Assembly (NCBI GenBank): GCA_029249225.1
Contig: JAQWHT010000079.1
Location: 1 to 36,125 of the forward strand
Direction: 5' to 3'
DNA from: Flavobacteriaceae bacterium
GTDB taxonomy: Bacteria; Bacteroidota; Bacteroidia; Flavobacteriales; Flavobacteriaceae
DNA length: 36,125 nucleotides
Positions 12,518 to 15,869 of the stretch are shown piece by piece (position 1 is the first letter of the stretch; every line of letters begins with the position of its first letter). The position numbers and the translations under genes are program-made. Below the pieces are notes generated by a model, which worked only from the letters and a program-made list of their open reading frames with translations, made no database searches and was not told the DNA's origin.

Positions 12518-13072
12518 TTAGGATTTGATTTTCTTTGGATTCTGACTGACATAAGCACTCCAACCTGAATAATTTTTTTCATTGGTCGGTTTACCCATAT
12601 TGTAAAAATGACATACAGCAGCAGCCAAGCCATCAGTGGCATCTAAATTTTTAGGCAAGGTTTTAATTTTTAGGAGTTGCTGAAGCATTTTAGCTACTTG
12701 TTCTTTGGAAGCGTTTCCATTTCCGGTAATTGCCATTTTAATTTTTTTTGGGGAATATTCTGTGATGGTCAACTCTCTGGACAGGCCTGCTGCCATGGCA
12801 ACACCTTGAGCCCTTCCTAACTTAAGCATAGACTGTACATTTTTTCCAAAAAAAGGAGCTTCAAGTGCCATTTCATCAGGATGATACTCGTCAATTAACT
12901 CAATAGTTCTCTTAAAAATATGGTGCAGTTTCAGAAAATGATTATCGTATTTTTTAAGATGTAACTCATGCATCTGAATCATTCTCATCTTATCATTCTT
13001 CACCGCAATCAATCCAAATCCCATTATTGTTGTTCCTGGATCAACACCCAAAATAATTTGTTCTTCCTGCAT
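12518..13072 (-). CDS. ruvC: Crossover junction endodeoxyribonuclease RuvC
   Basis: 184 residues, normal for RuvC. It resolves Holliday junctions made during recombination by symmetric cleavage, acting as a dimer with RuvAB. The four acidic catalytic residues are in place: Asp11 (GVDPGTT), Glu71 ([10 protein letters not shown]), Asp144 and Asp147 ([13 protein letters not shown]). [16 protein letters not shown] is the usual helix. The start ATG overlaps the stop of the upstream lipoprotein gene by one base (TAATG), so translation is probably coupled. The hemW neighbour 15 bp downstream is a metabolic gene sharing only the operon. Confidence 0.96.
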
Positions 13073-13629: not shown

Positions 13630-13661
13630 GTTTTACTCATCTAAATCAATTGTATACACTT

Positions 13662-14162
13662 ATGGACCTTCTGTTAGTATGTATTTCAGGACTTTTTATT
13701 TTTCTAGGAATCGTAGGCAGCTTTATTCCTATTATTCCTGGTCCACTCACATCTTGGATTGGATTATTTTCACTAAGCTTTGTCAAAGTTGTTAATATTT
13801 CCACCCCTTTTTTACTCATCAGCTTTTCAATCGCCCTTTTAATATTTTTACTTGATATTTTTATCCCCATAGCAGGCGCAAAAAAATTTGGAGGTGGAAA
13901 AGGCAGCACCTATGGAGCTAGTGTAGGATTGTTGATAGGACTACTATTTTTAGGTCCTTTGGGAATACTGATTGGACCTTTTATGGGGGCTTTTATAGGA
14001 GAGCTTATTGTGAATCAAAATAACAACAAAGGGGCGTTTAAAGCTGCTCTAGGATCTCTTATTGGATTTTTATCAGGGGTTTTTCTCAAGTTTATTATTG
14101 GTCTAGCTTTCGGATTTTATTATTTAAACTTTGTTTGGAATGCGCGTAATGATTTGTTTTAA
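13662..14162 (+). CDS. DUF456 family membrane protein
   Basis: 166 residues from ATG 13662; the frame opens earlier at TTG 13650, but MDLLLVCISG is the more natural start. Most of the protein is membrane-embedded: helices at about 3-30 and 38-58, then glycine-rich helices at about 82-110 and 125-155. LGIVGSFIPIIPGPLTSW, KFGGGKGSTYGASVGLLIG and GPFMGAFIGELI are characteristic of DUF456, a family of small glycine-zipper-like membrane proteins with no assigned biochemical role. It is monocistronic and convergent with the cas9 relic. Confidence 0.88.
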   Translation: MDLLLVCISGLFIFLGIVGSFIPIIPGPLTSWIGLFSLSFVKVVNISTPFLLISFSIALLIFLLDIFIPIAGAKKFGGGKGSTYGASVGLLIGLLFLGPLGILIGPFMGAFIGELIVNQNNNKGAFKAALGSLIGFLSGVFLKFIIGLAFGFYYLNFVWNARNDLF

Positions 14163-14168
14163 AATCAT

Positions 14169-14299
14169 AAAAAAACCCCTTTCTCCAATAATTCAATCAA
14201 ACCACAACACTATATTTATTTAATGAATGTTGTTGTATGCCATAAGCATATTTATTAATGCTTTACTACTTTTTGTAGGGCGAAATTGGGAAAGGGGTT
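14169..14299 (-). terminator. Terminator-like multi-hairpin RNA just after the cas9 relic
   Basis: Arms at 14174-14189 and 14285-14299 (AACCCCTTTC(T)CCAAT / ATTGGGAAAGGGGTT) pair over 15 bp with one bulged base. On the minus strand the structure begins 4 nt after the relic's stop and ends in seven T. Three smaller hairpins are nested inside: ACAACA/TGTTGT (14204-14233), AAGCAT/ATGCTT (14244-14263) and CTAC/GTAG (14266-14278). It can serve as the terminator of the relic and for the convergent DUF456 gene. Its size and nested hairpins also allow a decayed tracrRNA or other structured RNA, which is speculation. Confidence 0.5.
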
Positions 14300-14303
14300 A
14301 GCT

Positions 14304-15818
14304 TCATGAATAGTTTTTTATTGCGTTTTTAAATTCGTTTGTTTCATCTTTTATAGATAGTTTACCTATTGCATTCATCCATACTTTAATTGGATTGTGT
14401 GTAACCCAACCTGTTTTACGCAATCCAAAATTGTTAATTCTAATATAATACGGAAATTCTGTTGAGCTAGTATCATTATGATGAACAAGTCTAAATTCAT
14501 AAAACTTACTAGATAGTTTTTGAACACGATAAAGATGTTTTGCTAAAAAACTTTTTGACTCATACTTAAGGTTTAACTCTGTTTCTTCGAGGTCAAGAAG
14601 AAATAAGTCATTGATTTGAAGAGTTGTAACAAATTCTTCTCCATCTTCAGGGAGTTGGAAAATTGGTTCTCCAAATCTGTATCTTCTAATAGCTTCCCAA
14701 AAAGTAACCACTTGTTCACAGTATTGCTGATCGTGATTTAAATAAATAAGAACATGATGATTATTTCTCAAATTCACATATTGATTGAGTCCCTCTTTCA
14801 ACTGAACGACCCCACTTAATATTTCTCGAATTCGTACACTTTTAATAGGAACCTGATCTCCCTTTGTATTCGTAAGGAATAGATTCGGCACAGAATATCC
14901 ATCTCTATTTTTTGAGAAAAACACCTTAGTTGGTATGGCTTCACCGCAAAATCCTCCGGCATCCTCAATTGCTTCTAACACTCTATTACGTATGGTTGGA
15001 TCTACGATTTTTAACACCTGTTTTTTTGTCTTTATTTGAGCTAGATTTTTTCTGATATGATACGCCTCTCTTTGATCTTCGGGTGATCTTCTTTTGCCAA
15101 GTATGGTTTCTTTATGTAAAGACCCTCTTACGGACAAGCATAAGTTTTCGAATTGTTTGTCTCCATTTTTAGTTTTATGTCTTCTACTACTGATCAACTT
15201 ACTAACCTTTTTGTGGGATACCAAAACAGAATGTATATGATATTCCACATCATCTTGAAAACCCTTGTAAGGTTCAGGAAACAGAATCCTTTTTGATGAA
15301 GGCTGATATTTGTTTTCACTGGCTAATAACTCAATATACTTTTTTGATCTATTTGCATTGATGTAGGCCAAAAGTGCATGATAGCGAAAATCTAATTGTG
15401 GCGTTTCATAAACTTCTGGTTTAAAGATCTTGTGAAGTCTCCATTTTTCAATAAACATTAAAGTTGATTGACCTGGAGATATCCCAACTTTGGTGACTCC
15501 TTGGGATAAATAATTTTGGAGAGTCCTACTCAAAATATTTGCATCATTAAGCTGATGTTTTAAAGGATCCCTATGATTATGCTTTTTGACAAATCTTTTA
15601 AATTTTCTATAACTGGAAGGAAAAGACTTTGTGTTAGAAAAAAGTCTAGCCGCACGTTTTACAACCGCATTCCATTCCTCAGCATTATTTGAATTGAAAA
15701 ACTCATAGGGGCTGTATTCTAAAATATTTTTTGAAAAGGATTTTAGACAAAGTGCTTTGTTCCAATGACTGTCATTTAGAGAATACTTCCAAGGTTGGAT
15801 GTAAACGATTTGCCAGAT
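14304..15818 (-). pseudogene. cas9: Relic of a type II-C cas9 (C-terminal third, catalytic residues eroded)
   Basis: An uninterrupted 505-codon frame whose product is recognisably the C-terminal part of a Bacteroidota type II-C Cas9. Codons 1-95 (15818-15534) match the end of the HNH domain and its linker (IQPWKYSLNDSHWNKALC, SPYEFF, LNDANILSR). Next come the RuvC-III region (QLDFRYHALLAY), the bridge SVRGSLHKETILG, and the wedge/PAM-interacting domain (LNQYVNLRNNHHVLIY, FQLPEDGEEFVTTLQINDLF, YRVQKLSSKFYEFR). A TGA at 15819-15821 ends homology upstream. RuvC-I, the recognition lobe and RuvC-II (about 900 residues in the family) are absent. RuvC-III normally reads HHAxDA; here it is YHALLA, so the catalytic Asp is Leu. 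The HNH His appears to be Tyr (IVYIQPW for IEHIIPW). The first in-frame start-like codon is TTG 15533, without a ribosome site. No cas1, cas2 or repeat array is nearby. The Cas9 assignment is firm; whether anything is still expressed is unknown. Confidence 0.9.
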
Positions 15819-15834
15819 TCAAATTTGATAATAA

Positions 15835-15869
15835 AACACCTCCTTTTTAAATAATATAAATCAGGTGTT
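15835..15869. repeat. 7-bp inverted repeat at the upstream edge of the cas9 relic
   Basis: AACACCT (15835-15841) and AGGTGTT (15863-15869) flank 21 AT-rich bases, just beyond the point where Cas9 homology stops. It could be a decayed terminator or a scar of the deletion that removed the 5' part of cas9. On the minus strand the second arm includes AAGGAGGT, a perfect Shine-Dalgarno-like string, but only short peptides follow it. Confidence 0.4.

What the first reader, a model, noticed from the sequence alone, without database searches (positions are those of the whole stretch)
14304..15818. Open but decapitated and catalytically eroded type II-C Cas9 fragment
A 505-codon stop-free frame encodes only the end of HNH, RuvC-III and the PAM-interacting part of a Cas9. 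RuvC-III reads YHALLA where the family has HHAxDA, and the HNH His position appears to be Tyr, so both cleavage sites are dead. About 900 N-terminal residues, cas1/cas2 and the array are gone. Neutral decay of an AT-rich 1.5-kb stretch should have introduced stops, yet none is present. Either the large deletion is recent, or a non-nuclease fragment (DNA- or RNA-binding wedge/PAM domain) is still made. The missing start codon argues for decay; the open frame argues against long decay.
Basis: partly seen in the sequence, partly recalled or inferred. Interest (0 to 1): 0.82.

Follow-up and report, generated by a model that had tools for sequence, protein, structure and literature searches.

The report
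Relic of a domesticated dead Cas9
The window holds the broken tail of a Cas9 that had lost its DNA-cutting sites long before it was truncated; intact relatives in other marine flavobacteria keep it with one or two fixed guide RNAs and no CRISPR memory, as if a bacterial immune enzyme had become a natural RNA-guided gene switch.

Summary
On the minus strand, 15818-14304 is a 504-codon open frame matching Cas9 from mid-HNH to near the C-terminus. HNH reads VY for E-H and RuvC-III YHALLA for HHAxDA. About 640, not 900, N-terminal residues are missing.

The reading changes. The dead sites are inherited, not decay. Full-length relatives (G018 80%, G014 59% identity) are dead too, and dead proteins show purifying selection. 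They sit at one chromosomal place (beside DUF456/ruvC) in several flavobacterial genera. They keep a tracrRNA upstream and one or two single crRNA units downstream, with guide ends conserved across genera. Type A, the window's kind, adds a LuxR-type HTH gene. cas1 is absent (0 of 10 genomes; active sisters 10 of 10), as are arrays.

In the window a ~2.5-kb deletion removed HTH gene, tracrRNA and dCas9 N-terminus; the crRNA unit survives (14190-14228). The window copy is thus a recent wreck of a domesticated, probably regulatory, dead Cas9.

Candidate target: the trpE promoter in G018 and G022 matches the guide over 19 nt with one extra base, beside NNAAA. Found in 2 of 6 genomes; unproven.

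The parts
14304..15818 (-). C-terminal relic (504 codons + stop) of a nuclease-dead Cas9: end of HNH, RuvC-III and the C-terminal (WED/PAM-interacting) part; homology to the intact relative starts at about 15809
14209..14228 (-). crRNA guide, 20 nt, identical in 11 of the 13 genus genomes that hold the unit; its last 12-19 nt are kept in other type A genera
14190..14208 (-). shortened CRISPR repeat of the crRNA unit (GTTGTGGTTTGATTGAATT); the same repeat pairs with the tracrRNA in intact G018
14163..14303 (-). inferred crRNA-containing RNA, predicted hairpin with arms 14288-14299 and 14169-14183, the latter ending in a T run (terminator-like)
   Evidence: fold -37.0 kcal/mol
15810..15845 (.). 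deletion junction: relative to G018 about 2.49 kb (HTH gene, tracrRNA, dCas9 codons 1-640) is missing here
13650..14162 (+). DUF456 gene, syntenic marker beside dead-Cas9 loci of several genera (context, not part of the system)
12518..13072 (-). ruvC, second syntenic marker (context)

Best explanation
The window piece is a recent 5' truncation of a domesticated, nuclease-dead Cas9 that is inherited at one chromosomal locus in marine Flavobacteriaceae. The intact cassette is: [LuxR-type HTH gene, type A only] - tracrRNA (opposite strand) - dCas9 - one (type A) or two (type B) single crRNA units. Shown by sequence: dead HNH and RuvC sites, purifying selection, crRNA:tracrRNA complementarity, conserved guides, no array, no cas1. 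Inferred: dCas9 loads the crRNA:tracrRNA pair, binds DNA at a short guide match beside an A-rich PAM without cutting, and acts as an RNA-guided transcription factor, most simply as a repressor that covers a promoter; the HTH protein would add or tune the response. Best target candidate: the promoter in front of the trp-type leader and trpE (anthranilate synthase), where the guide would cover the -7 box. In the window genome the system cannot work: HTH, tracrRNA and the N-terminal lobe are gone; the crRNA is a leftover. My estimates: relic of a dead-Cas9 lineage 0.95; intact forms bind guide and DNA 0.8; transcription control 0.65; trpE target 0.4.
For: Full-length dead relatives at the same locus. 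Catalytic table over 80 named loci: 19 dead at sites read, 59 with the active residues where read (two of these, L138 and L144, have V before the HNH His), 2 not assessed. dN/dS 0.145 (L183/L186, dS 0.54) and 0.126 (L194/L199, dS 0.97), G018/G014 0.146 with dS saturated. tracrRNA upstream of 17 of 17 dead loci whose upstream is held; 18 aligned, invariant core, 4 of 14 predicted pairs with two-sided compensatory changes. crRNA units: 1 in 9 of 9 type A, 2 in 9 of 9 type B loci. crRNA:tracrRNA duplex of two 8-bp stems around a bulge for G018; the UUU bulge kept here is reported essential for Fp2Cas9 (PMC12609912, passages). cas1 in 0 of 10 dead against 10 of 10 active genomes. 16 of 16 tested type A/B loci beside DUF456, 0 of the 41 active loci tested. 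HTH beside 7 of 7 type A loci whose upstream is held. trpE promoter site.
Against: No expression or binding data. 7 of 19 dead loci are interrupted by stops or frameshifts (L126, L127, L166, L186, L192, L196, L199), real or MAG errors, so the gene is often lost; both unsaturated dN/dS pairs include one such locus (L186, L199), only their stop-free parts being compared. No 20-nt protospacer within 2 mismatches exists outside the crRNA units in 10 genomes. Seed counts do not exceed the reversed control in any telling way (22 vs 19, 357 vs 423, 20 vs 19), and the trpE site was found in only 2 of 6 genomes, one of which (G022) has an interrupted dCas9. crRNA units persist in genomes that have lost dCas9, which this model explains only by recency. 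L177 keeps the HNH His and RuvC-III Asp, L183 and L186 the RuvC-III Asp, L184 the RuvC-I Asp. Type B has no HTH gene.
Confidence: 0.7

Rival explanations
1. Plain recent pseudogene of an ordinary, formerly active type II-C CRISPR system; the dead residues arose during decay.
For: No usual start codon near the frame's beginning, 5' deletion, no array or cas1.
Against: Full-length, selected relatives are dead too; the crRNA and tracrRNA of the lineage are distinct and conserved; cas1 was absent from all 10 dead-Cas9 genomes searched and no array was seen at 19 dead loci.
Confidence: 0.06
2. The 504-codon fragment is itself still made as a non-nuclease DNA- or RNA-binding protein.
For: Frame fully open, gene-like codon positions, no rate increase on the window branch; G013 and G175 have open frames that join the HTH start to the dCas9 C-terminus.
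Against: No in-frame ATG, GTG or TTG before residue 96, a stop directly before residue 1, no tracrRNA or HTH partner found, and a remnant of this size in 1 of 38 genus genomes.
Confidence: 0.06
3. The dead clade is a silencing defence: dCas9 with a fixed guide represses one recurrent phage or plasmid rather than a host gene.
For: Guide conserved over genera; no genome-wide excess of chromosomal seed matches.
Against: Only 2 exact matches of the last 18 guide bases + NNA in IMG/VR, with unrelated flanks; a fixed guide suits a changing invader poorly; chromosomal promoter match in two genomes.
Confidence: 0.15
4. The whole lineage is decaying and its conservation reflects only recent common ancestry.
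For: Repeated losses and interruptions.
Against: dN/dS 0.13-0.15 between dead proteins; dCas9s 34-57% identical to G018 keep tracrRNA core and guide ends.
Confidence: 0.06

Closest known systems
Type II-C Cas9 of Flavobacteriaceae, here mostly 1123-1166 aa open frames with active residues; Fp2Cas9 of F. psychrophilum (PMC12609912, passages read) is a characterised II-C enzyme of the family, not compared by sequence here
   Same: Protein homology over the full length of the relatives, tracrRNA of the same design at the same place, repeat start GTTGTGGTTTGATT, UUU bulge
   Different: Both nuclease sites dead in nearly all members, no cas1 found, no array, one or two fixed crRNAs, shortened repeat and antirepeat, extra HTH gene in type A
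scaRNA:tracrRNA:Cas9 regulation in Francisella novicida and long-tracrRNA autoregulation (review PMC8730458, passages read; the species of the latter, S. pyogenes, recalled)
   Same: A crRNA-like RNA with short complementarity would direct non-cutting Cas9 binding to a promoter or 5' UTR
   Different: There Cas9 is still an active immune nuclease; here it is dead and immunity is gone
TldR, TnpB-derived nuclease-dead RNA-guided repressors (PMC13418256, passages read; Wiegand 2024 only as cited there)
   Same: Nuclease-dead, guide kept, genetic partner gene; guides as short as 6 nt suffice
   Different: TnpB-derived; here Cas9 with a separate tracrRNA and crRNA
dCas12f-sigma-E RNA-guided transcription activators of Bacteroidota (recalled; one search found no paper on them)
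   Same: Exapted dead CRISPR effector with a transcription partner in the same phylum
   Different: Effector is Cas9; the partner is a small LuxR-type HTH protein. An ECF sigma gene lies across the intergenic region in the window's genus but is an ordinary neighbour, also present in genomes with only dCas9 remnants

Membership tests
Cas9 (TIGR01865) | Profile match over the curated cut-off | tested here: not met
   Window fragment 91.2 bits against a cut-off of 100, model 596-1033; it is a fragment. The intact relatives were not scanned with this profile
Cas9 (TIGR01865) | Cas9 fold | tested here: met
   For the G018 relative, not the window fragment: nearly all of the 50 listed Foldseek hits are titled Cas9 (best E 1e-35, TM about 0.5; model pLDDT 76.4, pTM 0.54); HNH_4 over its cut-off
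Cas9 as RNA-guided nuclease | Catalytic HNH and RuvC residues | tested here: not met
   Window: HNH VY, RuvC-III L for D. Relatives: with exceptions named in the report
Type II-C CRISPR-Cas immune system | cas1 in the genome | tested here: not met
   0 of 38 genus genomes; 0 of 10 dead against 10 of 10 active genomes
Type II-C CRISPR-Cas immune system | CRISPR array | tested here: not met
   19 dead loci: at most 2 hits of the repeat pattern. 52 of 61 other loci: at least 3 hits (one can be the tracrRNA antirepeat) and 2 or more spacers
Type II-C CRISPR-Cas immune system | tracrRNA | tested here: met
   17 of 17 dead loci with upstream held; not present in the window
Cas9-based RNA-guided transcription regulator (scaRNA kind) | Short guide match at a host promoter | tested here: inconclusive
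   trpE promoter in 2 of 6 genomes, one-base bulge
Cas9-based RNA-guided transcription regulator (scaRNA kind) | Guide-dependent change of expression | not testable with these tools
   needs experiment
TldR | TnpB ancestry | tested here: not met
   Best matches by profile, sequence and fold are Cas9 or its domains; no separate TnpB profile was run

The most novel reading that the evidence does not exclude
Marine flavobacteria carry a vertically inherited, domesticated Cas9: a permanently dead Cas9 with its own tracrRNA, one or two fixed crRNAs and, in one branch, a LuxR-type HTH partner, working as an RNA-guided transcription factor that controls a host promoter, possibly that of the tryptophan operon (trpE), through a short seed beside an A-rich PAM. 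The window shows one of several independent losses of this switch in one genus.
Probability: 0.45. Interest if true: 0.95.

Novelty: new variant of a known kind. Interest (0 to 1): 0.86.

Why it matters
Active Cas9 is known to moonlight in gene control, and dead TnpB (and, recalled, Cas12f) relatives are known regulators. I found no printed description of a natural clade of full-length dead Cas9 with dedicated guides. The nine searches were made; several matched far more papers than were listed, subscription journals are mostly missing and no bioRxiv collection is held, so this is not proof of absence. If true, it would be the natural counterpart of laboratory dCas9/CRISPRi, offer non-cutting Cas9s with matched RNAs, and make directly testable how an immune effector becomes a fixed regulator, since active sisters, intact dead forms and several stages of loss coexist in one family.

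Tried and rejected
Own-genome search for the missing N-terminal part: none. Guide within 3 mismatches in 10 genomes: 27 sites, 8 of them the crRNA units, the other 19 all with 3 mismatches, against 13 for the reversed control. 11-nt seed in 5 genomes: 22 sites against 19 reversed; 17 non-self sites, no shared orthologous target. 12-nt seed + NNAA with 2 mismatches: not above the reversed control (G018 71 vs 84, G014 65 vs 80, G022 74 vs 110, G057 147 vs 149). 9-nt seed + NNAA, exact, 6 genomes: 20 sites against 19 reversed; one orthologous pair, G018/G022, trpE promoter. Guide in IMG/VR: 2 hits, unrelated flanks. Dead Cas9 in viral contigs: 32 pattern stretches, none a relative. Local target near the cassette: none consistent. 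PAM of active relatives: 4 arrays against phages gave 17 hits, 6 fetched; five sites from three spacers (three sites are one phage family) have A at position 3 of the 3' flank; a sixth, with 6 mismatches, does not and was set aside. ECF sigma factor as partner: rejected, an ordinary syntenic neighbour. Rfam on the locus: two weak hits far below cut-off. HTH model from a single sequence: pLDDT 57.6, not used. Tree: quick method, long branches flagged; I rely only on dead A, dead B and the active group being separate, and on L174 as a second dead case.

Full report
What is in the window. On the minus strand, 15818 to 14304 is one open frame of 504 codons and a stop. It matches the Cas9 profile TIGR01865 at positions 596-1033 (E 5e-26, below its cut-off) and, weakly, solved Cas9 chains (best E 3.5e-4). 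Codon-position GC (0.42, 0.32, 0.26) is near that of neighbouring genes. HNH reads VYIQPW where active relatives read EHIHPW; RuvC-III reads YHALLA where they read HHAIDA. A stop stands directly before residue 1; the first TTG is residue 96 and the first ATG residue 121. In the assembly (2.09 Mb, 133 contigs, 90% complete) I found no other Cas9, no cas1 and no HTH partner gene.

The same genus has the complete gene, and it is dead too. Of 38 same-genus genomes, 9 match the fragment, the window's included. G018 (80% identity) and G014 (59%) have frames of 1141 and 1140 aa at the same place. G016 has a long frame that runs to a contig end, with the N-terminal part on another contig; G022 is interrupted. 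All five, window included, read VY in HNH and lack HHAxDA (for G022). RuvC-I reads LGLS or LGLY instead of LGLD in the three whose start was read. G015, G013, G011 and G008 hold only short C-terminal remnants.

The dead group is wider. A search of 397 genomes of the family gave 40 matches, among them a set with open frames of 1122-1163 aa scoring 837-1503 bits, apart from longer Cas9s (1302-1539 aa frames, at most 267 bits). A scan of the genome collection (one genome for each of 84,980 species) with two peptide patterns gave 147 relatives, of which 80 were kept. Of these 80, 19 are dead at the sites read, 59 carry the active residues where read (L138 and L144 with V before the HNH His), and 2 (L171, L189) were not assessed because the script picked another frame. 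Exceptions among the dead: L177 keeps the HNH His and RuvC-III Asp, L183 and L186 the RuvC-III Asp, L184 the RuvC-I Asp; L123, L124, L125, L126, L137 and L192 keep the RuvC-II Glu. L127 was read at RuvC-III only. In the tree (43 rows, quick method) dead type A, dead type B and the active group (which holds L174) have support of 100, 99 and 100; the dead label needs two changes, one for A plus B if the root lies among the active forms, one for L174.

Dead systems keep matched RNAs. In 17 of 17 dead loci whose upstream DNA is held, a tracrRNA lies just upstream of dCas9 on the opposite strand, ending in a terminator with a T run. Ten active genomes (11 of the 14 loci read) have the same kind of RNA at the same place. 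Eighteen tracrRNAs from dead loci share the invariant core TCTTATC-CA-TAAGGCT; 4 of 14 predicted pairs have two-sided compensatory changes. Downstream of dCas9 lies one crRNA unit in 9 of 9 type A loci and two in 9 of 9 type B loci; L174 shows none with that motif. With the looser pattern used for arrays, no dead locus exceeds 2 hits, whereas 52 of 61 other loci have at least 3 hits, one of which can be the antirepeat, and 2 or more spacers in the held stretch. The type A repeat (GTTGTGGTTTGATTGA) is a shortened form of the active repeat and pairs with the shortened antirepeat of G018 in two 8-bp stems around a bulge. The UUU bulge is kept; it is reported essential for Fp2Cas9 (PMC12609912, passages), an enzyme I did not compare by sequence.

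Guides. Of 13 genus genomes with the unit, 11 have the 20-nt guide ATTCATTAAATAAATATAGT unchanged; other type A genera keep its last 12-19 nt. Type B guides end in AGTTAAAATTT (9 of 9) and AAGTATAGT (8 of 9). Conservation at the PAM-proximal end, while dCas9s are only 34-57% identical to G018, suggests a short-seed target that is itself conserved.

Selection and inheritance. L183/L186: dS 0.54, dN 0.078, ratio 0.145. L194/L199: 0.97, 0.122, 0.126. In each pair the second locus is interrupted, and only its longest stop-free part was compared. G018/G014, both intact: ratio 0.146, dS saturated (2.56). Window fragment against G018: pS 0.744 (saturated), pN 0.134, in the range of four neighbouring genes (0.065-0.282). 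16 of 16 tested type A/B loci lie beside DUF456; L174 does not, nor do any of the 41 active loci tested (41 of 59). cas1 is found in 0 of 10 genomes with dead Cas9, the window's included, and in 10 of 10 with the active sister. This fits one domestication at one locus followed by vertical descent and repeated loss. Against constant need: 7 of 19 dead loci are interrupted.

The HTH partner. A 130-144 aa protein with a LuxR/GerE domain (PF00196, E 3e-8 and 3e-5 in two of them) is encoded directly upstream in 7 of 7 type A loci with upstream held and in none of 9 type B loci. In the genus it is found in 8 of 38 genomes, some copies interrupted. In G013 and G175 its start is joined in frame to the dCas9 C-terminus.

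How the window copy arose. Alignment with G018 places the break between about 15810 and 15845: roughly 2.49 kb with the HTH gene, the tracrRNA and dCas9 codons 1-640 is missing. The window branch is not accelerated, so I infer a recent loss. The crRNA unit (guide 14209-14228, repeat 14190-14208) is intact. Thirteen of 38 genus genomes hold the crRNA motif with at most one mismatch to the pattern; eight of them have no or only a short dCas9. Whether those crRNAs are leftovers or have another use is open; the pattern search biases towards well-kept copies.

Target. Outside the crRNA units no guide match with fewer than 3 mismatches was found, and seed counts are at control level. With a 9-nt seed and NNAA, 20 sites in 6 genomes were read (19 for the reversed control); one pair is orthologous: G018 (L255:1490-1509) and G022 (L240:292-311). 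There the DNA reads TTCATTAAATCAAATATAGT, the guide with one extra C, followed by ACAAAA or ATAAAT. Fp2Cas9 prefers NNAAAG, and five protospacer sites of active relatives have A at position 3. On the other strand this is ACTATATTTGATTTAATGAA, containing TATATTTG, a match to the Bacteroidetes -7 box TAnnTTTG (consensus recalled), upstream of a hairpin-plus-T leader (read by eye) and a TrpE-type gene in G018 (PF04715, PF00425); in G022 the trpE side runs off the locus held. Of 40 shuffled guides none has a match within one edit in the 1.73 Mb held, but that set includes loci fetched with the seed. The site was not found in G014, G016, G057 or G221 by this pattern. I rate the target at 0.4.

Structure. 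The G018 dCas9 model (17 sequences; pLDDT 76.4, pTM 0.54) has Cas9 structures as its best PDB matches (E 1e-35, TM about 0.5). Domain orientation is not reliable at this pTM.

Verdict. The window feature is a relic. Its importance lies in what it is a relic of: a natural, vertically inherited dead Cas9 with fixed guides. I file it as a new variant of a known kind, namely exapted, nuclease-dead RNA-guided effectors, with Cas9 as a new source. It is not a member of an active type II-C immune system: catalytic residues, cas1 and array were tested and not met. It may work like scaRNA-Cas9 or TldR regulation; that is inferred.

Noticed in passing
L017 8696-9289 (+) in G013; L068 8370-8900 (-) in G175: Open frames of 198 and 177 codons that join the HTH protein's start in frame to the last ~65-105 residues of dCas9, in two genera, with the crRNA kept downstream; perhaps chance deletions, perhaps small fusion proteins.
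   Followed up: partly
G001:C38, G003:C41, G012:C21 (L203, L204, L208): crRNA units with guide and repeat nearly intact where no dCas9 or HTH gene was recognised in the 3 kb held.
   Followed up: partly
L174 (contig CALPLL020000015.1, titled Rhizobium sp. Q54 MAG): A second, apparently independent dead Cas9 (RuvC-I Y, HNH EY, RuvC-III E) nested among active flavobacterial Cas9s, with a long active-like antirepeat in its tracrRNA; the Rhizobium label is probably a binning error.
   Followed up: partly
L255 1481-1545 (+) and the matching stretch of L240: The trpE promoter with the guide match is flanked by a conserved 9-11 bp inverted repeat (TATTGTTCGG ... CCGAACAATA).
   Followed up: no
L163, L177, L183-L186, L194, L196, L199 downstream of dCas9: Type B dead systems carry two crRNA units with different conserved guide ends (AGTTAAAATTT in 9 of 9, AAGTATAGT in 8 of 9); neither has a target found near the cassette, and type B genomes were not searched for targets.
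   Followed up: partly
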